A stretch of DNA of 64,000 bases from Stigmatella aurantiaca (GTDB taxonomy: Bacteria; Myxococcota; Myxococcia; Myxococcales; Myxococcaceae): assembly GCF_900109545.1 (NCBI RefSeq), contig NZ_FOAP01000004.1:372001-436000 (forward strand), in the 5' to 3' direction. Under the pieces are notes generated by a model. It was not told where the DNA came from. It saw only the letters and a list, made by a program, of their open reading frames with translations, and searched no databases. A program made the position numbers and the translations under genes. Below are positions 23,479 through 35,804 of the stretch, piece after piece (positions within the stretch are counted from its first letter, which is position 1; each line of letters begins with the position of its first letter).

Positions 23479-24336
23479 ATGCTGAAGATCGCTCTTCCCA
23501 ACAAAGGCCGTCTCTCCGAAGAGGTCCGTGAGCTGTTCAATGATGCTGGGCTCGAGGTGCGCGTCCGCGGAGAGCGGGCCCTCACCGCCTCGCTGGGTGG
23601 CGAGTTCGAGGCCATCTTCGTCCGGGCCCAGGACATCCCCGAGTTCGTCGCGGATGGGGCCGCCCACGCGGGCGTCACCGGGTGGGACCTGGTGAATGAG
23701 TCCGGGCGCGAGCTGGACCTGTTGATGGACCTGGAGTTTGGCAAATGCCGCCTGGTGGTGGCCGCCCGGGAGGAGAGTGGCCTCACGTCGGTGGAGGGGG
23801 TGAAGGACGGGATGCGCGTGGCCTCGTGCTTTCCCCGGCTGACGCAGGAGTTCTTCCAGCGCCGGGGGCAGCAGGTGACGGTGGTGCCTGTCTCCGGCGC
23901 GGCGGAGATCGCCCCCCACCTGGGCATCGCGGACATCGTCGTGGACCTGACCTCCACGGGCTCCACGCTGAAGATGAACGGCCTGCGCGAGGTGGGCACC
24001 GTGCTGGAGTCCAGCGCCCGGCTGGTGGCGTGCAAGCGCAATAACGAAGAGGCCTCGATCCGGCTGGGGGAGCTGAGGCAGGCCCTGGGCTCGGTGCTGG
24101 CGGCCCGGGGCAAGCGCTACCTGATGGCCAACGTGCCGCGCAAGGTGCTGCCCCAGGTGCGGGAGATCCTCCCGGGGCTCAATGGGCCCACCGTCGTGGA
24201 CATCATGAACGGCGGGGACTTTGTGGCCGTACACTCCGTGGTGCCCGCGAAGACCATCTACCGCACCATCAATGGGCTGAAGGCCCTGGGGTGTGAGGGC
24301 ATCCTCGTCACCCGCATCGAGAGGCTGATGCCATGA
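23479..24336 (+). CDS. hisG: ATP phosphoribosyltransferase HisG (long form)
   Basis: 285 residues. It catalyses the first, feedback-inhibited step of histidine synthesis, ATP + PRPP to phosphoribosyl-ATP. The conserved N-terminal LKIALPNKGRLSEE, the phosphate-binding DLTSTGSTLKMNGL and the C-terminal regulatory domain (from about 210; KRYLMANVPRKVLPQV and GLNGPTVVDI) identify the long HisG form that works without HisZ. It is the first gene of the operon, 39 bases after the attenuator terminator, and overlaps hisD by four bases. Confidence 0.97.
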   Translation: MLKIALPNKGRLSEEVRELFNDAGLEVRVRGERALTASLGGEFEAIFVRAQDIPEFVADGAAHAGVTGWDLVNESGRELDLLMDLEFGKCRLVVAAREESGLTSVEGVKDGMRVASCFPRLTQEFFQRRGQQVTVVPVSGAAEIAPHLGIADIVVDLTSTGSTLKMNGLREVGTVLESSARLVACKRNNEEASIRLGELRQALGSVLAARGKRYLMANVPRKVLPQVREILPGLNGPTVVDIMNGGDFVAVHSVVPAKTIYRTINGLKALGCEGILVTRIERLMP

Positions 24337-25634
24337 GCGGGGGAACGCTGAAGTACCGGGGCGCGCTCTCCGCCCTGTCCGCCGAGGCCCGGCGCCGTCT
24401 GCTCGATCGGACGGGGACGTCGGATTCGCAGGTCGCCGCGAGGACCCGGGAGCTGATCGCCCGGGTGCGCCAGGACGGGGACGCCGCGCTGCGGGCGCTG
24501 GCGCTCCAGTTCGACCGGGTCCAGCTCTCCTCGCTGGAAGTCCCCCGGGCACGGTGGGAAGAGGCGCTGGCCTCGCTGGAGCCGAAGGTCCGGACTGCCC
24601 TGGAGCGGGCCGCCCGCAACATCGCCACGGCCCATGCGGCCCAGAAGCCCCAGGCCATCGAGGTGGAGACGGAGCCGGGCATCGTCGTGGGCCGGAGGCC
24701 GGATCCGCTCGGCCGGGTGGGCGTCTACGCGCCGGGAGGCCGGGCCGTGTATCCCAGCAGCGTGTTGATGGGGGTGGTGCCGGCGAAGGTGGCCGGGGTG
24801 GGGGAGGTCATCGTTTGCTCGCCCCCCGGGCCAGAGGGGCTGCCCTCGGCCGGGGTGCTGGCGGCGGCGCTGCTGGCGGGCGCGGACCGGGTGTTCGCCC
24901 TGGGCGGCGCGGGGGCGGTGGCCGCCATGGCCTATGGAACGCAGAGCGTGCCCCGGGTGGACCGCATCGTGGGGCCCGGCAATGCGTATGTCGCCGCCGC
25001 CAAGCTCCAGGTGGTGGACGCGGTGGCCATCGACGCCCCGGCGGGGCCCAGCGAAATCCTTGTCGTCGCGGATGGCTCGGCGGACCCCGAGGCGATTGCC
25101 CGCGAGATGTTGGCCCAGGCCGAGCACGATCCGGACGCCTGCTGCGTGACGCTGGCGGTGGGGGAGGCCCAGGCCGAGGCGGTGGCCCAGGCCGTCGAGC
25201 GGGCGGCGGCCCGGGCGCGGCGGCAGGAGATTGTCTCCACCTCCTTGAAGGAGCGCGGGGCCGTGTTGAGCGTAGGCTCCCTGGAGGAGGCCTGGCCCTT
25301 CGTGTCGGACTTCGCGCCCGAGCACCTGCTCCTCGCCACCGCCGCCCCCCAGGAGCACCTGGGGCGGGTGCGGCACTGTGGCACCGTCTTCCTCGGCGAG
25401 CGCGCCTCGGTGGCCTTCGGGGACTACATGACGGGGGCCAACCATGTGCTGCCCACCGCGGGGCTGGGCCGTGCCTACTCGGGCCTGTCCGTGCTCGATT
25501 TCTACCGGTGGACCGCCTGGCAACGGGTGGAGCGCGAGGCGGCGGCGCGGCTCGCGGAGGACGTGGGGACGCTCGCCGACAGTGAGGGGCTCTTCGCCCA
25601 CGCGGACGCCGCCCGGGCCTGGAGGAACGCGTGA
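24333..25634 (+). CDS. hisD: Histidinol dehydrogenase HisD
   Basis: 433 residues. It performs the last two oxidations from histidinol to histidine. Segments seen include GRVGVYAPGGRAVYPSSVLM (partly shown), VGPGNAYVAAAK, the family hallmark AGPSEILVVADGSADP, the zinc-binding AQAEHDPDA and FAPEHLLL, and a C-terminal TAGLGRAYSGLSVLDF. It starts with ATGA overlapping hisG, and its stop overlaps the hisC start, indicating translational coupling. Confidence 0.97.
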   Translation: MSGGTLKYRGALSALSAEARRRLLDRTGTSDSQVAARTRELIARVRQDGDAALRALALQFDRVQLSSLEVPRARWEEALASLEPKVRTALERAARNIATAHAAQKPQAIEVETEPGIVVGRRPDPLGRVGVYAPGGRAVYPSSVLMGVVPAKVAGVGEVIVCSPPGPEGLPSAGVLAAALLAGADRVFALGGAGAVAAMAYGTQSVPRVDRIVGPGNAYVAAAKLQVVDAVAIDAPAGPSEILVVADGSADPEAIAREMLAQAEHDPDACCVTLAVGEAQAEAVAQAVERAAARARRQEIVSTSLKERGAVLSVGSLEEAWPFVSDFAPEHLLLATAAPQEHLGRVRHCGTVFLGERASVAFGDYMTGANHVLPTAGLGRAYSGLSVLDFYRWTAWQRVEREAAARLAEDVGTLADSEGLFAHADAARAWRNA

Positions 25635-26668
25635 TGCGCACCCGTCCGTCCTATCGAGACATCTCGCTCTACTCGCCGCCCACCGTGCCGTGCCGGGTGG
25701 ACCTGAGCGACAACACCAACCTCTTCGGCGTGCCCCCGGCCGCCGAGCGGGTGCTGCGGGAGGCCGCGCCCTCGCTCATCACCCGCTATCCCGTCAGCTA
25801 TGCGCCGGACCTCAAGCAGGCCCTCTCGGGCTACACGGGCTTCGAGCCCTCGTGGCTCACCACGGGCTGCGGCTCGGATGACCTCATCGACTGTGCCCTG
25901 CGCGCCTTCCTGGAGCCCGGAGAGCGCATCGCCGTGCCGGATCCGTCCTTCTCGATGATGTCCTACTTCGCCCGGGTGAATGGCCTCGAGTTCTCCCCGG
26001 TGCCGCTCCGGCCAGATTGGGACATTGATGTGGACGCGATGCTCGCCACCGGCGCGCGGTTGCTCTACGTCTGCTCGCCCAACAACCCCACCAGCACGGT
26101 GGCCTCCCGCGCCGCCCTGGAGCGGCTGGTGGACGCGGCGCCCGGCATCGTCCTGCTGGACGAGGCGTACACGGAGTTTTCCAACGGCAGCCACGTGGAC
26201 CTGGTCCGCTCGCGGCCCAATGTCCTCGTCACGCGGACGCTGTCCAAGGCCTTTGGCCTGGCGGGCATGCGCGTGGGCTACGCCATCGGGCGTCCCGAGC
26301 TGGTGGCCGAGGTGGAGAAGGCCCGGGGCCCCTACAAGCACAACGGCATCGCCGAGCGCATGGCCATCGCCGCCCTCACCGAGGATCTGCCCTGGGTGAA
26401 GGCGCGGGCGGAGGAGGTGCGCGCCCTCCGGCAGCGGCTGGTGGCGGCGCTGGAGGGAATGGGCCTGAAGCCCCTGCCCACCGAGGCCAACTTCGTCTTC
26501 GTCCCGTTCCCGGGAGCGCCCCAGGTGGCCGCCCGCATGCGGGAGCGGAGCGTGAACATCCGGGCGTTCCAGGGGCTCACCGGCATGGGGGATGCGTTCC
26601 GGATCGGCTGCGGCCCCTGGCCCTTGATGGAAGCGGCGCTCGACGCGCTGCGGGAGGCATGGCGATGA
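25631..26668 (+). CDS. hisC: Histidinol-phosphate aminotransferase HisC
   Basis: 345 residues. It is a PLP-dependent fold-type I aminotransferase. The substrate/cofactor segments SPNNPTSTV and VLLDEAYTEFS and the PLP-lysine motif TLSKAFGLAGMRVGYA are intact. The C-terminal RIGCGPW carries the conserved Arg. The start is GTG at 25631, overlapping the hisD stop; the next codon is ATG, also usable. Confidence 0.95.
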   Translation: MMRTRPSYRDISLYSPPTVPCRVDLSDNTNLFGVPPAAERVLREAAPSLITRYPVSYAPDLKQALSGYTGFEPSWLTTGCGSDDLIDCALRAFLEPGERIAVPDPSFSMMSYFARVNGLEFSPVPLRPDWDIDVDAMLATGARLLYVCSPNNPTSTVASRAALERLVDAAPGIVLLDEAYTEFSNGSHVDLVRSRPNVLVTRTLSKAFGLAGMRVGYAIGRPELVAEVEKARGPYKHNGIAERMAIAALTEDLPWVKARAEEVRALRQRLVAALEGMGLKPLPTEANFVFVPFPGAPQVAARMRERSVNIRAFQGLTGMGDAFRIGCGPWPLMEAALDALREAWR

Positions 26669-27258
26669 GAGTCACCCTGTTCGACTACGGCGCGGGGAAC
26701 ATTCACTCCCTCGCCAAGGCCCTGGCCACGGCCCCGGGCGCGGACGTGCGCGTGGAGACGGATCCCCTGAAGGCACTGGACACGGAGGTGCTCGTTCTTC
26801 CGGGCGTGGGGGCCTTCGGTTCCGCGGCGGCGCGGCTCGCGCCCGGCCGGGAAGCCATGCGCCAGGCGCTGGAGCAGGGCCTGCCGTGTCTGGGCATCTG
26901 CCTGGGCATGCAGCTGCTCTTCGAGGGCAGTGACGAGGGCGAGGGCCAGGGGCTCGGCCTCTTCCGGGGCCGGGTGACGCGGCTGCGCGCCCAGCAGGTG
27001 CCCCACATCGGCTGGAACACCGTGGAGGAGGATGCCGCGGTGAAGGGGGCGAGGCTGGACTCGGTCTATTACGCGCACAGCTTCGCCTGCCGGGCCGGGG
27101 AGTCCGGCGTGGTGTCCGGCTGGACGGCGCACGAGGAGGACCGCTTCCCGGCCTCGGTGCGGCGGGGAAAGGTGCTCGGGGTGCAGTTCCATCCCGAGAA
27201 GAGCTCGTCGGCCGGGGTGGGGTTTCTGCAGGCCTTTCTGAAGGACGTGACGTCATGA
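26665..27258 (+). CDS. hisH: Imidazole glycerol phosphate synthase glutaminase subunit HisH
   Basis: 197 residues. This class I glutamine amidotransferase supplies ammonia to HisF. The nucleophile is in LGICLGMQLLFEGSDEG; His and Glu are in GVQFHPEKSS; the oxyanion-strand PGVGAFG is present. Two ATG codons are in frame. GGGAGG at 26652-26657 lies seven bases before the ATG at 26665 but only one base before that at 26659, so 26665, which also overlaps the hisC stop, is chosen. Confidence 0.95.
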   Translation: MRVTLFDYGAGNIHSLAKALATAPGADVRVETDPLKALDTEVLVLPGVGAFGSAAARLAPGREAMRQALEQGLPCLGICLGMQLLFEGSDEGEGQGLGLFRGRVTRLRAQQVPHIGWNTVEEDAAVKGARLDSVYYAHSFACRAGESGVVSGWTAHEEDRFPASVRRGKVLGVQFHPEKSSSAGVGFLQAFLKDVTS

Positions 27259-27968
27259 TCGCCATTCCCGCCATTGATTTGAGAGAGGGCGCCTGCGTGC
27301 AGCTCGTGGGCGGCTCGTACGACGCCGAGCGCGTGCGGGTGAACGACCCGCTCGATGCGCTGAAGAAGTGGCGCGGCCTCGGCTTCCGGACGTTCCATGT
27401 GGTGGACCTGGACGCCGCGCTGGGCAAGGGCTCCAACCTGGAGGTCATCTCCCGGCTGCTCTCCCACGAGCCGGGGCTCACCTTCACGGTGGGCGGCGGC
27501 GTGCGGGAGGCCGCGAGGGTGGAGGCGGTGCTCGCCGCCGGCGCCGCGTTCGCCGTGGTGGGCACGCGCGCCATCGAGGACACCGCGTGGCTGGCGGAGG
27601 TGGCGGGGCGCTTCCCGGGCCGGTTGGTGGTGGCCGCGGACGTGAAGGGCCGCGAGGTGGTGACGCGCGGCTGGACGGCGGGCAGTGCGCGGGACGTGAA
27701 GGACGTGCTCGCGGCGCTGGACCCGCTGCCCCTGGGCGGCTTGCTGGTGACGGCCGTCCACAAGGAGGGGCAGATGGGCGGGGTGGATCTGCCGCTGATG
27801 CAGGAGGTGGTCCAGGGCAGTCGCCACCGGGTGTACGCCTCGGGAGGCGTGACGACGCTGGAAGACCTCCGGGCCCTGGCGGCCGCGGGGGCCTATGGGG
27901 CCGTCATTGGCATGGCCCTCTACACGGGGACGCTCGACGCGGCCTCGGCCGCACGGGAGTTCGCATGA
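27255..27968 (+). CDS. hisA: Phosphoribosylformimino-AICAR ribotide isomerase HisA
   Basis: 237 residues, a TIM barrel. The catalytic Asp is in AIDLREGACVQLV; the second is in LVVAADVKGREV. Phosphate-binding loops are TVGGGVREA and YASGGVTTLEDL. It performs the ring-opening isomerisation in the pathway. It overlaps hisH by ATGA and hisB by ATGA. Confidence 0.95.
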   Translation: MIAIPAIDLREGACVQLVGGSYDAERVRVNDPLDALKKWRGLGFRTFHVVDLDAALGKGSNLEVISRLLSHEPGLTFTVGGGVREAARVEAVLAAGAAFAVVGTRAIEDTAWLAEVAGRFPGRLVVAADVKGREVVTRGWTAGSARDVKDVLAALDPLPLGGLLVTAVHKEGQMGGVDLPLMQEVVQGSRHRVYASGGVTTLEDLRALAAAGAYGAVIGMALYTGTLDAASAAREFA

Positions 27969-28501
27969 CGATCGTGACTCGGGAGACGAAGGAGACGCAG
28001 ATCCGCGTCGAGCTGACGCGGGGCAAGGGCGTGGCCCAGGTGGACACGGGCCTGAAGTTCTTCGACCACATGCTGGGGACCTTCGCCCGCTACGCGGGGC
28101 TGGACCTGACGCTCCACGCGCGGGGGGACCTGCGCCACCACATCATGGAGGACGTGGCCATCACCCTGGGCACGGCGGTGTACCAGGTCATCCCGCCCAC
28201 CGCCGCGCGCTATGGCGAGCGCACGCTGCCCATGGACGACGCGCTGGTGCAGGCGGTCATCGACACCTGCGGGCGGTTCTATTACCGCGGGCCGCTGCGC
28301 AACCGGCTGTACGAGCACTGGATGCGCTCGTTCTGTGAGCACGCCAAGGTGACGCTCCACCTGCGCATCCTCCGGGGCAAGGACAGCCACCACCTCACCG
28401 AGGCGGCCTTCAAGGCGCTGGGCCTGGCGCTCCGGGATGCCATGGTGGACTCGGGCACCGTCTTCAGCACCAAGGGCTCCATCGCCCTGGAGGTGAAGTG
28501 A
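27965..28501 (+). CDS. hisB: Imidazoleglycerol-phosphate dehydratase HisB (single-domain)
   Basis: 178 residues, the dehydratase only, without the N-terminal histidinol-phosphatase of enteric HisB. Metal-binding histidine motifs are [25 protein letters not shown] and [14 protein letters not shown]. It starts with ATGA overlapping hisA. Its position after hisA, not before hisH, is less common in his operons. A separate histidinol-phosphatase gene must lie outside the window. Confidence 0.95.
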
Positions 28502-29262
28502 TGCTGGCGCGGCGGCTGATCGTCTGTCTGGACATGAAGGGCGGCCGGGTGGTGAAGGGCGTCCAGTTCGAGGGCCTGCGGGACGTGGGCGACCCCGTGA
28601 CGCTGGCCATGCGCTACGAGGCGGAAGGGGCCGACGAGGTGACGTTCCTCGACATCTCCGCCAGCGCCGAGGAGCGCGAGACGTTGTGGGACGTCGTCCA
28701 GCGCACCTCCGAGCGGCTCTTCATCCCCCTGACGGTGGGGGGCGGCGTGCGCACGGCGGATGACGTGGGCCGGGCGCTCCGGGCCGGGGCGGACAAGGTG
28801 AGCATCAACTCGGCGGCGGTGGCGAATCCGGAACTGCTCACGGCATGTGCGGAGCGCTTCGGCGCCCAGTGCGTGGTGGCCAGCATCGATGCGCGGCGCG
28901 AGGAGGGCCGGTGGCGCGTCTACACCCGGGGGGGCCGGACGCCCACGGGCCTGGACGCGGTGGAGTGGGCCCGCGAGTGCGTGCGCCGGGGCGCGGGCGA
29001 GGTGCTGCTCACGAGCATCGACCGGGATGGGGCCCGCACGGGGTACGACCTGGAGCTGACGCGGGCCGTGGCCGAGGCGGTGGCCGTGCCCGTCATCGCC
29101 TCGGGGGGCGCGGGGAATGCCCAGCACGTGCGCGAGGCGCTCACGGACGGCAAGGCGGACGCGGCGCTGGTGGCGGGCATCCTCCACGATGGCCTCACCA
29201 CGGTGGGCGCCATCAAGACACTGCTTCAGGACAACGGCCTCCGGGTCAGGAGCCAGGCGTGA
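28501..29262 (+). CDS. hisF: Imidazole glycerol phosphate synthase cyclase subunit HisF
   Basis: 253 residues, a TIM barrel paired with HisH. The catalytic Asp residues are in [12 protein letters not shown] and [18 protein letters not shown]. Phosphate loops [13 protein letters not shown] and [13 protein letters not shown] are present. ATG 28501 has GGAGGTG at a better distance than the in-frame GTG at 28498. Its last base is shared with the ATG of hisIE. Confidence 0.95.
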
Positions 29263-29885
29263 TGTTGGATCTCTCCAAGCTGGATTTCACCAAGGGCAAT
29301 GGGCTCGTCACCGTGGTGACGCAGGATGCGCGCAGCGGCGATGTGCTGATGGTGGCGCACGCGGACCGCGAGGCGCTGGAGCGGACGCTGGCCACGGGGG
29401 AGATGCACTACCGCTCGCGCACCCGGGGCCTGTGGCACAAGGGCGCCACGAGCGGCAACGTGCAGCGGGTCGTCTCCCTGTCGGCCGACTGCGATGGGGA
29501 TGCGGTGCTGGCGCGGGTGGAGAAGGCGGGCCCCGCGTGCCATACGGGCGAGGAGACCTGCTTTGGCCCGGGCAAGTGGGATGCGCTGGTGGCCCTGGAG
29601 GCCACCCTCACCGAGCGCGCGGCCCAGGCCCCCCCTGCCGGGGAGAAGCCCAGCTACACGCGAAGACTGCTGGACGACCGCAACCTCCGGCTGAAGAAGA
29701 TTGGCGAGGAGGGGGCGGAGCTGGTGACGGCCTGCGCGGACGGGGACCGGGGCCGGGCCGTGGAGGAGGCCGCCGACGTGCTCTACCACCTGCTGGTGGC
29801 GGTGCGCCCTCTGGGCATCCACCTGGAGGACGTGAAGCAAGTCCTGGCCCAACGGGCCGGGAAGGCCCCTCCTCGGCCGGGGTAG
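29262..29885 (+). CDS. hisIE: Bifunctional phosphoribosyl-AMP cyclohydrolase / phosphoribosyl-ATP pyrophosphatase HisIE
   Basis: 207 residues. The N-terminal HisI domain (1-about 115) has the signature RSRTRGLWHKG, the metal-binding DCDGDA and the ACHTGEETCF cysteines. The HisE domain (about 125-200) has RRLLDDRNLRLKKIGEEGAE and EEAADVLYHLLV. The fusion performs steps 2 and 3 of the pathway. It closes the his operon; an imperfect hairpin lies just downstream. Confidence 0.95.
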   Translation: MLDLSKLDFTKGNGLVTVVTQDARSGDVLMVAHADREALERTLATGEMHYRSRTRGLWHKGATSGNVQRVVSLSADCDGDAVLARVEKAGPACHTGEETCFGPGKWDALVALEATLTERAAQAPPAGEKPSYTRRLLDDRNLRLKKIGEEGAELVTACADGDRGRAVEEAADVLYHLLVAVRPLGIHLEDVKQVLAQRAGKAPPRPG

Positions 29886-32155: not shown

Positions 32156-33088
32156 ATGAGCCTTGCCGCGATGAACACCCCGGTGGCCCCGGCCCGTCTG
32201 GCCGGACTGCGCCCGCTGTTGAGTGAGCTGCTGGACCTCAAGCGGGTGCGCACGCCGGACCATCCGGAGGGGCTGTCGGCCCACGGCTTCCGCCGGGCCT
32301 GGGCCGCGCTCGCCGCGGGGGTGGACCCGGGCCGGGTGGCGCTGCGGGAGACGGCGCTGGCCCTGGCCGCGGTGCGCCTGGGGGGCATGGACCTGGAGGT
32401 GCTCCAGCGTGCGGGGATGTCTTCCGAGGAGGCCACGAGCCTGCTGCGCCGGGGCGTGGAGTCGGCGTCCGGGAGCGTGGAGCCGCACCTGCGGGAGCGG
32501 TTGATCGCCGCGGTGGCGGAGCCGCTCAGCACGGAGCGGACCGCGCCCCCGGCGTTCGTGGAGCGGCTGGTGCGCCAGCCTCGCGCGGGCGCCACCAGCC
32601 CCCATGGCCCCCGCATCCTCATGGAGCCGCTGGAGAGCCACGCCGACCACTGCTACGCGGTGGCGATCTCGGCGGTCCTGGTGGCGCCCCTGATGGAGGC
32701 GGAGCTGGCGATGCCGTTCCTGGCCGGGATGAGCCACCACCTGTACAACGCGGAGCTGCCGGACGCGGGCTTCGCCGGGGAGGTGCTGCTCGGGGAGCAG
32801 CTGGTGCCCCTCATGAACCGCCTCACCGAGCGGGTCCTGGGCAGCCTCGAGGCAGGCCCCGCGGCCCGGGTGAGGGCGGCGCACGGGCTGCTGTCCCACT
32901 CCGGCACGCCGGAGGCCCGGGCCTTCCATGCCGCGGACGCCTTGGACCGGGTGCTGGAGATGGACTACCACGCCCGGGTCGCGGGCTTCACCCTGGGGCA
33001 GGCGCTGGAGGACCTGGAGCTGGTCCACGAGGGGCCGCACCAGGCCTTCGAGCAGTCGGTGGTGAAGGCCGCCGGAGTGTGGCCGTGA
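32156..33088 (+). CDS. HD-superfamily-like protein, first gene of the YcaO cassette
   Basis: 310 residues, soluble. The first about 150 residues are helical and unassigned. From about 160 there is an HD-phosphohydrolase-like core: ESHADHCYAVAISAVL, then AGMSHHLYNAELPDAGF. This matches the H...HS / YHDxSE...GD plan of YfbR-type HD proteins. However, the defining His-Asp pair reads His-His, so metal binding would have to be rearranged. A GGGGGGAG precedes the ATG. Its stop overlaps the start of the methyltransferase gene (GTGA), so the three genes 32156-35804 form one operon. Function is unknown. Confidence 0.72.
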   Translation: MSLAAMNTPVAPARLAGLRPLLSELLDLKRVRTPDHPEGLSAHGFRRAWAALAAGVDPGRVALRETALALAAVRLGGMDLEVLQRAGMSSEEATSLLRRGVESASGSVEPHLRERLIAAVAEPLSTERTAPPAFVERLVRQPRAGATSPHGPRILMEPLESHADHCYAVAISAVLVAPLMEAELAMPFLAGMSHHLYNAELPDAGFAGEVLLGEQLVPLMNRLTERVLGSLEAGPAARVRAAHGLLSHSGTPEARAFHAADALDRVLEMDYHARVAGFTLGQALEDLELVHEGPHQAFEQSVVKAAGVWP

Positions 33089-34284
33089 ACTCCGTGCGTG
33101 TGGCCGAGGCGCCGTCCCTGGGCCTGCGCGGCCCGTTGAGCCAGCAGCCCCTGCACCTGGTGGCCCCCGGGGTGCTGTCCGACGGCGACACGCGCTGGCC
33201 GGTGGTGGATGGCATTCCGTACCTGCGCACGGGCCGTGAGCCGCTCCTGGCCGAGGCGCTCGCCGCGCTGAAGCGGGGGGATCGCCGCCTGGCGCTGGCC
33301 CACCTGCTGAGGGATCAGGATGACTGGGCCCGTTCCCCGCCGCCCTCCCTGGAAGAGACGCTGGCGGTGGTGGACGGCGTCGACACGGGCACCCTGGGGC
33401 TGCGCCAGGCGATGGAGCGGCTGCGCTTCGGCCCGGTGGCGCACTACTTCACGCACCGCGGGTCGGCGCCCACGTTTCTGAGCGCCCTGGGGCTGCTGGC
33501 GCAGCACTGGGATGCGCCCCCGTGCGTGGTGGAGATCGCCTGCGGCATCGGCCAGGTGCTGCGCGAGGTCATCCAGCGCGGCACGCCCGGGGTGGGCCTC
33601 GACGTGGTGTTCGCCAAGCTGTGGCTGGCGCGCCACTTCGTCGTCCCGGAGGCGAGCCTGGTGTGCGTGGATGCCACGGTGGCGCTGCCGCTGGAGCCCC
33701 TCGCGGGGGCGGCCGTGCTGTGCCATGACGCGCTCTACTTCCTGCTGGAGAAGCGGCGGGTGCTGTCGGAGATGCGCCGCGTGGCCGGCGCCTCGGGCCG
33801 CGTGCTGGTGGGCCATGCCCACAACCGCCTCGTGGACCAGCGCGGCATCGGGGGCGTGCCGCTCACCCCCGAGGAGTACGCGGCGCTGCTGCCCGGCGCG
33901 GCCTGCTATGACGACGCCGACTTCGTGACGGCGTTCCTGGAGGGCAAGGCCGCCCCGGCGCGCGCCCCGGCGGCCCTGGGCCGCGCGGAGGCCCTGTGCT
34001 TCAGCGCGCCCGCGGGCCCCGCGCGGGGTTCCATCGATTTCGGGCGGCCCAACCCGGGGACCCCGCTGAAACCCAACCCGTTGCTGGTGGAGCGCAACGG
34101 CCTGCTGCACCCCTCCTGGCCCTCGCCGGGGCTGGCCGACGAGTATGCCTGCGCGAACTACCTGGGCGGGCAACCCTCCCTGGGCGCGGACCTCCTGCGC
34201 CGGGCCGCCTCGGGCCTGGTGGATGACGAGATCGCGCTGCTGGCCCGGCGGCGGATGCTGCTGGAGCTCCCCGAGCGGTGGTGA
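33085..34284 (+). CDS. SAM-dependent methyltransferase-like protein, second gene of the YcaO cassette
   Basis: 399 residues from the GTG at 33085, which overlaps the preceding stop; CCGGAGTG at 33072-33077 is well placed. The N-terminal segment WPVVDGIPYLRTG resembles the end of Trm112-type ribbons but lacks cysteines. The class I methyltransferase core has motif I VVEIACGIGQVL (about 148-159), the acidic VGLDVVF strand and VCVDATVALPLE. The last about 120 residues, rich in Pro and Ala, are unassigned. The substrate is unknown; it may act on the same target as the YcaO protein, 47 bases downstream. Confidence 0.78.
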   Translation: MNSVRVAEAPSLGLRGPLSQQPLHLVAPGVLSDGDTRWPVVDGIPYLRTGREPLLAEALAALKRGDRRLALAHLLRDQDDWARSPPPSLEETLAVVDGVDTGTLGLRQAMERLRFGPVAHYFTHRGSAPTFLSALGLLAQHWDAPPCVVEIACGIGQVLREVIQRGTPGVGLDVVFAKLWLARHFVVPEASLVCVDATVALPLEPLAGAAVLCHDALYFLLEKRRVLSEMRRVAGASGRVLVGHAHNRLVDQRGIGGVPLTPEEYAALLPGAACYDDADFVTAFLEGKAAPARAPAALGRAEALCFSAPAGPARGSIDFGRPNPGTPLKPNPLLVERNGLLHPSWPSPGLADEYACANYLGGQPSLGADLLRRAASGLVDDEIALLARRRMLLELPERW

Positions 34285-34331
34285 GCCTTCACCGAGCGGC
34301 CCCCACACCTTACCCCCATGCAGGAGCCGTC

Positions 34332-35804
34332 ATGAGCTTGAGAGAAGCCCGGGAAACCTATCTCCGCGCGATGCCCCAGGGAGAGCTGGAGTTGTTCCGC
34401 ATCGATGGCCTGGACCGGCTGAGCGTGCCGGTCGTCGCGGGCAGCCTCCGGGTGCCCAACGGGCTGTGGTTCCTCTCCTACGGCTATGGCAGCACGCAGG
34501 AGGAGGCCGAGGTCAGCGCGCTGGGGGAGCTGGCCGAGTATGTGTTCACCAGCCAGGCCCTGGGCACCATGCCCCTGTTCGAGGGCAGCTACAGCGAGCT
34601 GGTGCAAAGCCGCGGCGCCCGGGGCGTGGCGGATCCGCTCACCCTGGGGTTGCCCGTGGGCAGCCCCTACCACCCGGACATGCCGCTGACCTGGGTGGAG
34701 ATGAGGCGGTTCGCCACGGGCGAGCGCGTGCTGGTGCCGGAGGAGTACATCGTCAGCTACCCCGAGCAGCGCCGGGGGCGCTCGGCCTCGCTCATCACCC
34801 CCATCACCAATGGCCAGGGCGCGGGGCTGAGCTTCTCCCAGGCGCTGGCCCACGCCCTGCTGGAGATCCTCCAGCGCGACGGCAACGGCCTGCAGTTCCG
34901 GGCCATGGACCAGGGCACGGTGCTGGATCTGGAGGGCGCCGACCTGCCGGCCTCCGTCGTGTCGCTGCTGGAGCACTACCGCCGCGCGGGCATCGAGGTG
35001 GTGGCGAAGCTGGCCAGCACCGAGTTCGGCATCGCCAACGTGTACGTGGTGGGCAATGACCCGAACCCCGGCGAGCAGCCGCTGATGGTCACCTCCTGTG
35101 GCGAGGCGGCGGACCCGGACCGGGACCGGGCCCTGCGCAAGGCGGTGCTGGAGTACGCCGCCTCCCGGTCGCGCAAGGCCTTCATGCACGGGCCCCTGGA
35201 GGCCGTGAACCGCGTGGCCCCGGCCGGGTACCTGAACCGGTTCCTGCCGTTGTTGGATCTGCACCTGGAGGAGACGCGCGCCCTCAACTCCATGATGGAG
35301 TGGGCCAGCATGCCCCTCAGCGTCCTGCGCAAGCTGACCTCCAGCACGCTCCACTGCCGCCACAAGGTCCCCTTCGGCTCGCTGCCCCAGTCGGCCGTGG
35401 CCGGGGAGCCCACCGCGCGCTGCGCGCAGGTGGTGGAGCGGCTCCAGGCGGCGGGCTTCGACATCCTGGTGGCGGACCTGCCGGCGGAGGATGGCTCCGC
35501 CCACGTCGTCAAGGCGCTCGTCCCCGGGCTCGAGGTGGAGACGATGTCCTACTACCGCATCGGTGAGCGCAACCTGACCCGCTTGCTGTCGCGGGGAGAC
35601 CCGCTGGTGGGCCTCGGGGCGCCGCCCGAGGGCGCGCTGCCCGTGCGGCTGACCGCGGAGGCCCAGGAGCGGGTGGGGGGCCCTGCCTGGTTCAACGTCC
35701 GGCTGGCCGAGCAGCGCGTGGGGCGGCTCTATCCGCTCTACCGCGAGCCGAGTGACCACAGCGTCCAGATGGCCCTGAAGTCCCGCCGCTACGGCGGGGC
35801 CTGA
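34332..35804 (+). CDS. YcaO-domain protein
   Basis: 490 residues. AGGAG at 34322-34326 selects the ATG at 34332. The three ATP/Mg-binding blocks of the YcaO fold are seen in order: EEAEVSALGELAEYVF (about 56-71), FSQALAHALLEILQRDGNG (about 172-190) and ALRKAVLEYAASRSRKAFM (about 268-286). YcaO proteins use ATP to activate a backbone amide, or assist beta-methylthiolation of ribosomal protein S12. The C-terminus (SRRYGGA) lacks the PxPxP of azoline-forming cyclodehydratases. No E1-like partner, TfuA, dehydrogenase or precursor peptide is adjacent, so this is not a standard TOMM locus. Confidence 0.85.
   Translation: MSLREARETYLRAMPQGELELFRIDGLDRLSVPVVAGSLRVPNGLWFLSYGYGSTQEEAEVSALGELAEYVFTSQALGTMPLFEGSYSELVQSRGARGVADPLTLGLPVGSPYHPDMPLTWVEMRRFATGERVLVPEEYIVSYPEQRRGRSASLITPITNGQGAGLSFSQALAHALLEILQRDGNGLQFRAMDQGTVLDLEGADLPASVVSLLEHYRRAGIEVVAKLASTEFGIANVYVVGNDPNPGEQPLMVTSCGEAADPDRDRALRKAVLEYAASRSRKAFMHGPLEAVNRVAPAGYLNRFLPLLDLHLEETRALNSMMEWASMPLSVLRKLTSSTLHCRHKVPFGSLPQSAVAGEPTARCAQVVERLQAAGFDILVADLPAEDGSAHVVKALVPGLEVETMSYYRIGERNLTRLLSRGDPLVGLGAPPEGALPVRLTAEAQERVGGPAWFNVRLAEQRVGRLYPLYREPSDHSVQMALKSRRYGGA

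What the first reader, a model, noticed from the sequence alone, without database searches (positions are those of the whole stretch)
32156..35804. Three-gene HD-like / methyltransferase / YcaO cassette without a known partner set
A YcaO protein is coupled to an HD-fold protein and a class I methyltransferase in one operon. No E1-like protein, TfuA, dehydrogenase, protease, transporter or precursor peptide is adjacent, and the YcaO C-terminus lacks PxPxP. The set may modify a protein (as for S12 or methyl-coenzyme M reductase) or a distant precursor. This is the best candidate here for an undescribed modification system.
Basis: partly seen in the sequence, partly recalled or inferred. Interest (0 to 1): 0.75.

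Follow-up and report, generated by a model that had tools for sequence, protein, structure and literature searches.

The report
Split YcaO inositol-sugar pathway cassette
Three neighbouring genes of a myxobacterium are one part of a conserved nine-gene pathway, shared with leaf-dwelling bacteria, that looks as if it builds an inositol and amino-sugar molecule with the help of a YcaO enzyme, a type so far known for editing peptides.

Summary
The three genes are real and under purifying selection: an HD-fold protein, a class I methyltransferase and a YcaO (start probably 34332). They are not a free-standing set. In 62 of 68 long loci (mostly Methylobacterium and Sphingomonas) they sit in one collinear cluster: inositol-3-phosphate synthase, HD, MT, Gfo/Idh, (MBL-fold), YcaO, TIM barrel, BshA/MshA-like glycosyltransferase, PIG-L deacetylase. 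In this genome the other genes lie on another contig with a second YcaO (69% identical) and lack exactly HD and MT: the cluster is split. Among the neighbours examined I found no precursor peptide, TfuA or E1 protein. Best reading: a small-molecule pathway beginning like mycothiol/bacillithiol synthesis, in which YcaO activates a carbonyl or amide of a sugar/cyclitol intermediate. Rival: YcaO modifies the nearly invariant glycosyltransferase tail CRFRxxPHLL. Against simple models: seven Aureimonas and Microvirga loci carry this YcaO without the other genes, beside a sugar-type ABC importer (7 of 7) and, in three, a UV-photoproduct-lyase gene. My paper searches listed no description of the cluster. 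The product is unknown; UV protection is a lead only.

The parts
32156..33088 (+). HD-fold protein, YfbR/HDDC2-type fold in residues 130-310, with HH where the HD motif is expected; helical N-terminal part
33079..34284 (+). class I SAM-dependent methyltransferase with a conserved C-terminus LPERW
34297..34335 (+). possible scar: codons like the end of the MBL-fold gene (RPPHLTPMQEPS-stop against RPHTQPIPMRELS-stop in L112), as if GFO and MBL had been lost between MT and YcaO; suggestive only, since the ribosome-binding site may explain part of the likeness
   Evidence: compared by eye
34332..35804 (+). YcaO protein, 490 aa; nearest solved relative MJ1094

Best explanation
The cassette is the relocated part of a conserved biosynthetic cluster, ordered MIPS-HD-MT-GFO-(MBL)-YcaO-TIM-GT-PIGL, with a MATE exporter in front in myxobacteria. 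In this genome the remaining genes are at G000:C10 with a second YcaO, and the two loci together hold the whole set. SHOWN: gene order, co-occurrence, complementary split, purifying selection, family assignments. INFERRED: inositol-3-phosphate synthase makes inositol phosphate; a BshA/MshA-like glycosyltransferase adds an N-acetylamino sugar; the PIG-L protein removes the acetyl group; the HD protein acts on the phosphorylated intermediate; Gfo/Idh and the TIM barrel oxidise and epimerise or dehydrate the ring; MT methylates it (optional: not found in four of the eight YcaO-bearing genomes). YcaO uses ATP to activate a carbonyl or amide of this small molecule for attack by a nitrogen or sulfur nucleophile, so it works without a precursor peptide. 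Pathway membership of the three genes: about 0.9. Small-molecule substrate of YcaO: about 0.45.
For: 62 of 68 loci of at least 20.5 kb carry MIPS, HD, MT, GFO, YcaO, TIM and GT (61 also PIGL, 15 also MBL), all 62 collinear on one strand; median gaps are -10 to +31 bases, although single gaps of up to 826 bases appear, partly through misplaced starts. In 59 relatives HD is in exactly the 8 genomes with a close YcaO (55% identity or more), and the GT in 7 of those 8 and in no other at E 1e-60. Complementary split: L112, L114, L116 and L118 have MATE-MIPS-GFO-MBL-YcaO-TIM-GT-PIGL without HD/MT; the window, L113, L115 and L117 have HD-MT-YcaO. G034 keeps HD-YcaO with a remnant of the MBL C-terminus between them, has no TIM match, only fragments of MBL and MIPS and no GT at E 1e-60, and shows substitutions at conserved sites; GFO and PIGL were not searched genome-wide there. 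GT: nearest folds include BshA and MshA. MIPS: nearest solved inositol-3-phosphate synthase, 1e-108. PIG-L: weak BshB/MshB similarity. TIM: sugar epimerases, IolE, IolI. No small-ORF family shared between lineages in 3-kb flanks other than alternative frames of one shared gene (limits given under Tried and rejected). The lone YcaOs of Aureimonas and Microvirga lie near a carbohydrate-type ABC importer in 7 of 7 loci, which points to a sugar-like substrate.
Against: As far as I know (recall) every characterised YcaO acts on a peptide or protein. The YcaO keeps most of the conserved acidic pattern, but one glutamate seen in E. coli YcaO and MJ1094 is Gln181 here. Seven lone YcaOs have no HD homologue and at best weak TIM homologues in their genomes, so this YcaO can exist without the pathway. 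The HD protein has His195 and Asn/Ser198 where YfbR has Asp and Glu (aligned by eye), so it may not be a phosphatase. The MBL protein reads SHxHG where HxHxDH is expected and was not detected in 47 of the 62 clusters. The nearly invariant GT tail is unexplained by this model. HD Ka/Ks in the decayed G034 copy against G017 is 0.48, still below 1.
Confidence: 0.5

Rival explanations
1. YcaO modifies the pathway's own glycosyltransferase: the tail CRFRxxPHLL is a built-in core peptide or switch on the enzyme, and its backbone amide or cysteine is converted by YcaO.
For: 77 of 79 GT sequences end in this motif (one with Tyr for Phe); of the two exceptions one is cut by a contig end and one reads PQLL. 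It follows a stretch with no invariant and one nearly invariant column. In the predicted GT structure the last two blocks have pLDDT 68 and 56, from an alignment of only 14 rows, so the tail is not confidently packed on the enzyme. In 59 relatives the GT occurs only with the YcaO.
Against: The MT also ends in a conserved tail (LPxRW, 74 of 74), so such tails may serve protein contacts. The seven lone YcaO loci lack the cluster's GT; their genomes were not searched for it. No binding was modelled.
Confidence: 0.2
2. A RiPP system with a precursor peptide encoded elsewhere in the genome; sugar enzymes decorate the peptide.
For: YcaO with a methyltransferase is common in RiPP clusters (general knowledge); the second YcaO and a MATE exporter fit natural-product biosynthesis.
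Against: No small-ORF family crossing lineages in the 3-kb flanks; no protease, E1, TfuA or leader-binding partner among the conserved genes scanned; inositol synthase, sugar dehydrogenase and sugar epimerase are not usual RiPP enzymes (general knowledge). The whole genome was not searched for precursors.
Confidence: 0.1
3. A protein-modifying YcaO, as for ribosomal protein S12 or methyl-coenzyme M reductase, that has merely become linked to sugar genes.
For: The nearest solved relative is MJ1094 (3e-25), and NCBIfam's McrA-thioamidation model scores 97 bits (cut-off 365). Lone YcaOs exist.
Against: Conserved gene order from Alphaproteobacteria to Myxococcota, with seven of the nine genes in a planctomycete contig, and joint decay in G034; no TfuA or RimO-like protein among the conserved genes scanned.
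Confidence: 0.07

Closest known systems
Mycothiol and bacillithiol front end (Ino1, MshA/BshA, MshB/BshB)
   Same: An inositol-3-phosphate synthase, a GT4 glycosyltransferase whose nearest folds include BshA and MshA, and a PIG-L deacetylase stand in one gene cluster.
   Different: All three score far below the mycothiol/bacillithiol equivalog cut-offs; no cysteine ligase was seen, though none was sought; YcaO, HD, Gfo/Idh, TIM barrel and MT are added.
Archaeal McrA-glycine thioamidation YcaO (MJ1094; TIGR03266)
   Same: Nearest solved sequence relative of the YcaO; that MJ1094 belongs to this class is recalled.
   Different: 97 of 365 bits needed; different gene neighbours.
Azoline-forming YcaO of RiPPs (SagD, LynD, TruD) and standalone amidine-forming YcaO
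   Same: YcaO domain; weak profile similarity to LynD/TruD/MusD.
   Different: 117 of 219 bits for SagD; no PxPxP; no E1 partner or precursor seen nearby.
Mycosporine-like sunscreen pathways (cyclase, methyltransferase, ATP-dependent ligase; from recall)
   Same: Logic only: cyclitol former, methyltransferase, ATP-dependent step, UV-repair genes beside a few loci.
   Different: No mycosporine enzyme was seen among the conserved genes; the comparison is an idea, not a test.
E. coli YfbR / human HDDC2 HD phosphohydrolases
   Same: Fold of HD-protein residues 130-310, Z 11.7-13.9.
   Different: HH instead of HD, and Asn/Ser at the position of the YfbR glutamate (aligned by eye); extra N-terminal helical part.

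Membership tests
YcaO superfamily | YcaO domain profile | tested here: met
   Pfam PF02624 1.7e-54, 185.8 bits against cut-off 25.7; TIGR00702 90.6 against 75.65
YcaO superfamily | conserved ATP/Mg-binding acidic pattern | tested here: inconclusive
   Most aligned acidic positions are kept against E. coli YcaO and MJ1094, but one Glu is Gln181; the roles of the residues are recalled, not tested
TOMM/azoline cyclodehydratase (SagD) | score above the curated SagD cut-off | tested here: not met
   117.2 of 219.25 bits
TOMM/azoline cyclodehydratase (SagD) | C-terminal PxPxP | tested here: not met
   C-terminus read directly
TOMM/azoline cyclodehydratase (SagD) | E1/ocin-ThiF partner and precursor peptide nearby | tested here: inconclusive
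   None among five window neighbours or the conserved cluster genes; no lineage-crossing small ORF in 3-kb flanks, window itself not included; distant genes not examined
McrA thioamidation YcaO | score above the curated TIGR03266 cut-off | tested here: not met
   97.1 of 365 bits
Mycothiol/bacillithiol biosynthesis | GT above MshA or BshA equivalog cut-off | tested here: not met
   83.2 of 462.5 and 81.7 of 273.7 bits for the Sphingomonas GT, although BshA and MshA are among the nearest folds
Mycothiol/bacillithiol biosynthesis | cysteine ligase MshC or BshC in the cluster | not tested
   Not seen among the conserved genes, but no targeted search was made
HD phosphohydrolase (YfbR type) | HD fold | tested here: met
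   Z 13.9 to 4dmb over 167 residues, 2.8 A, model pLDDT 89
HD phosphohydrolase (YfbR type) | catalytic H-HD-D set and YfbR glutamate | tested here: inconclusive
   By eye, His165, His194 and Asp261 are kept, but Asp is replaced by invariant His195 and Glu by Asn/Ser at 198; the automatic profile alignment to YfbR covered only 18 columns

The most novel reading that the evidence does not exclude
A YcaO enzyme that does not act on a ribosomal peptide or protein but on a non-peptidic inositol/amino-sugar metabolite, within a widespread pathway of leaf and soil bacteria, possibly making a UV-protective compound. Aureimonas and Microvirga may take up the sugar part and keep only the YcaO step.
Probability: 0.4. 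Interest if true: 0.9.

Novelty: new variant of a known kind. Interest (0 to 1): 0.7.

Why it matters
If YcaO acts on a small molecule here, the reaction scope of the superfamily extends beyond peptides and proteins, and a conserved pathway of abundant phyllosphere genera (Methylobacterium, Sphingomonas) gains a testable product. If instead it acts on the glycosyltransferase tail, this would be a biosynthetic enzyme carrying its own YcaO substrate. Either result gives a function to a YcaO group that met none of the specific class models that it was tested against here.

Tried and rejected
Rejected: free-standing three-gene system (partners at G000:C10). Rejected as filing: SagD, McrA-thioamidation, mycothiol/bacillithiol equivalogs (below cut-offs). 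Considered: myo-inositol-oxygenase-like HD oxygenase; the structural comparison ranked HDDC2 and YfbR highest and did not list that family, which excludes nothing. Remnants of other cluster genes around the window cassette: no hit better than E 0.03. Small-ORF search: ORFs of 20-120 aa in 3-kb flanks of the held loci, window itself left out, low-complexity filter on, and only families that cross lineages and include Sphingomonas or Methylobacterium were printed; the five families found are alternative frames of the shared photoproduct-lyase gene. Families confined to myxobacteria were not examined. An even draw of 240 genomes of the class of the Sphingomonas locus L044 had the HD protein only in the centre genome itself (1 of 240), with at most 9 candidates scored per genome, so misses are possible. 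Automatic profile alignments to E. coli proteins were weak: YfbR 18 columns, E 0.18; YcaO 45 columns, E 0.00024.

Paper searches whose listings showed no description of the cluster: (24, 33, 104 and 105 found no paper;'s 91 papers 20 were listed). One search was too broad to be informative: none of its 15 listed papers of 2,723 held the word YcaO. The library lacks most subscription papers. The lead to UVA-absorbing compounds and methylobamine of Methylobacterium rests on passages in PMC12573535 and PMC9664959; I saw no structure, and the original 2017 and 2018 papers were not read. PMC8561711, PMC8210630, PMC11333920, PMC10875822, PMC8841488, PMC8442711 and PMC11002830 were seen as passages only.

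Dropped or chosen rows: the tree used 43 YcaO rows that I picked from those held; alignments used hand-picked rows (A1 19, A2 14, A3 20, A4 14, A5 8, A6 10, A7 10, A8 9). One search kept the best 80 of 118 relatives, so the 62-of-68 count is of the closest relatives, most of them Methylobacterium, and related strains are not independent. The 68 leave out 12 shorter loci: five of these hold MIPS to PIGL without MBL, six are cut-down or partial clusters (L032, L034, L073, L087, L106, L111) and one is a lone YcaO. One PIG-L reading (L033) and some gene starts are wrong because starts were chosen by a simple rule, so the gap figures are approximate.
Full report
Observation. The window holds three same-strand genes: an HD-like protein (32156-33088), a methyltransferase (33079-34284) and a YcaO protein ending at 35804. 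Pfam gives HD_3 just below cut-off, Methyltransf_11, and YcaO at 1.7e-54. The YcaO start is probably ATG 34332: in G004 and G005 the stretch before it contains an in-frame TGA. Ka/Ks values of 0.20-0.42 (HD), 0.21-0.33 (MT) and 0.12-0.26 (YcaO), in four of the six possible pairs among four congeneric genomes, show that all three are maintained. Five neighbours scanned with Pfam are an acyltransferase, an SMR transporter, a disulphide oxidoreductase, a peptidase-M19 protein and one ORF without a match.

Co-occurrence among relatives. In 59 related genomes (own genome included), 26 have some YcaO match, but a close one (55% identity or more) is present in 8: G000, G001, G004, G005, G013, G017, G033, G034; matches elsewhere are at 27-33%. 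The HD protein is found in exactly these 8. The MT is found full-length in 4 (G000, G001, G004, G005); the other 6 genomes with hits show only partial methyltransferase-domain matches. The cluster's glycosyltransferase is in 7 of the 8, the exception being G034, and in no other at E 1e-60.

The larger cluster. A scan of genome contigs returned 80 loci, the best of 118. Of the 68 loci with at least 20.5 kb, 62 hold inositol-3-phosphate synthase (MIPS), HD, MT, a Gfo/Idh oxidoreductase, YcaO, an AP_endonuc_2 TIM barrel and a GT4 glycosyltransferase; 61 also hold a PIG-L deacetylase and 15 an MBL-fold protein; all 62 are collinear on one strand. The MBL assignment passes the Pfam cut-off in L112 and L033 but not in L034 and gave no MBL match in the Sphingomonas member; its N-terminus looks like a zinc or rubredoxin knuckle, below cut-off. 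The 62 are mainly Sphingomonas and Methylobacterium/Methylorubrum, with Lichenibacterium, Erythrobacter and Myxococcus qinghaiensis (L033), which has all nine genes plus a MATE exporter. A planctomycete contig (L034, 10.9 kb) has seven of the nine. The remaining 6 of 68 are lone YcaOs of Aureimonas and Microvirga.

The split in this genome. G000:C10 carries MATE-MIPS-GFO-MBL-YcaO-TIM-GT-PIGL, with a YcaO 69% identical to the window's, and no HD or MT; HD and MT have one match each in this genome, the window's. The window carries HD-MT-YcaO. The same complementary arrangement is seen in G001, G004 and G005 (L113 to L118). Just before the window YcaO lie codons resembling the end of the MBL gene, which suggests that GFO and MBL were deleted from a second copy; this is by eye and suggestive only. 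G034 shows a clearer case: HD and YcaO remain, separated by a readable remnant of the MBL C-terminus (29 residues at 72%), with substitutions at otherwise conserved sites in both (YcaO Glu66 reads Lys; HD Asp261 reads Asn), no TIM match, a MIPS fragment elsewhere, and no GT at E 1e-60. YcaO has duplicated repeatedly in myxobacteria: two tandem copies in G017 and three in L032.

The parts. HD: a confident model (pLDDT 89) aligns residues 130-310 with HDDC2 (Z 13.9, 2.8 A, 167 residues) and YfbR (Z 11.7); Foldseek itself gave no match below E 0.001. Invariant residues include His162, His165, His194, His195, Asp203 and Asp264. By eye against E. coli YfbR, the HD aspartate is His195 and the catalytic glutamate (role recalled) is Asn/Ser at 198, so the chemistry may differ from a phosphatase. 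YcaO: nearest solved sequence MJ1094 (3e-25), then LynD, TruD and a chain named YcaO; below the SagD and McrA-thioamidation cut-offs. GT: nearest folds BshA, a sucrose-phosphate synthase and MshA. MIPS: nearest solved inositol-3-phosphate synthase 7nwr, 1e-108. Gfo/Idh: nearest 1,5-anhydro-D-fructose reductase, with inositol dehydrogenases lower in the list. TIM: UlaE, IolE, IolI and sugar epimerases. The MBL protein reads SHxHG where HxHxDH is expected, and its best solved match, PqsE, is weak.

A tail to explain. 77 of 79 glycosyltransferases end in CRFRxxPHLL (one with Tyr for Phe), after a stretch with no invariant and one nearly invariant column. The model leaves the tail at low confidence. 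The MT ends in LPxRW in 74 of 74. These may be contact signals between pathway enzymes, or the GT tail may be the YcaO substrate.

Lone YcaOs. Seven loci (L069, L072, L093, L094, L097, L100, L105) have the YcaO without any other cluster gene nearby. Their genomes show no HD homologue (0 of 7) and at best weak TIM homologues (5 of 7, 25-34% identity). One search had no positive control of its own, but the same model matched 4 of 4 cluster-bearing genomes. A carbohydrate-type ABC importer (solute-binding protein, PF01547 in L072) lies downstream in convergent orientation in 7 of 7. A spore-photoproduct-lyase family gene (TIGR03886, 620 bits against a cut-off of 438 in L072) is directly upstream in L069, L072 and L097, and was not found in L093, L100 and L105, which have 10 kb upstream; L094 is cut short there. 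UvdE is in L072 and L097 only. The same lyase gene lies just downstream of the full cluster in Sphingomonas L108, and in none of the other loci searched. That is 4 loci in all, so the UV link is a lead, not a rule.

Mechanism. The set MIPS, BshA/MshA-like GT and PIG-L resembles the first steps of mycothiol or bacillithiol synthesis, but all three score far below those equivalog cut-offs. I infer an amino-sugar-inositol intermediate, further oxidised, epimerised or dehydrated and sometimes methylated. YcaO proteins activate amide carbonyls with ATP (recalled). With no precursor peptide found and small median gaps between the genes, the most likely substrate is the small molecule itself (about 0.45), then the GT tail (0.2), a distant peptide (0.1) or another protein (0.07); the rest is unassigned.

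Novelty. No listed paper joined YcaO with this gene set; the library omits most subscription papers and I saw listings rather than texts for most, so a prior description cannot be excluded. Members of every family here are known; the combination appears new. I therefore file it as a new variant of a known kind, with a bolder reading (a small-molecule YcaO) at 0.4.

Noticed in passing
G000:C10 (L112 1-19001): Second YcaO locus of the same genome, MATE-MIPS-GFO-MBL-YcaO-TIM-GT-PIGL, complementary to the window cassette.
   Followed up: yes
L032 2-4848; L121 9043-12059: Tandem YcaO copies, three in a Myxococcaceae MAG and two in G017; why several copies are kept is unexplained.
   Followed up: partly
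L069, L072, L097 upstream of YcaO; L108 14259-15311: Spore photoproduct lyase family gene (TIGR03886 in L072 and L097, homologues in L069 and L108) next to YcaO or to the full cluster, with UvdE in L072 and L097: possible UV-stress link.
   Followed up: partly
L069, L072, L093, L094, L097, L100, L105: Carbohydrate-type ABC importer genes convergent to the lone YcaO in all seven.
   Followed up: partly
GT C-termini, e.g. L044 12318-13523: Nearly invariant tail CRFRxxPHLL after a variable linker.
   Followed up: partly
L035-L111, alphaproteobacterial loci: The MBL-fold gene is present in the Sphingomonas/Erythrobacter clusters but was not detected in the Methylobacterium and Lichenibacterium ones.
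   Followed up: no
window 23479-29885: A histidine-biosynthesis-like gene run lies upstream of the cassette (recognised by eye from the translations, not searched).
   Followed up: no
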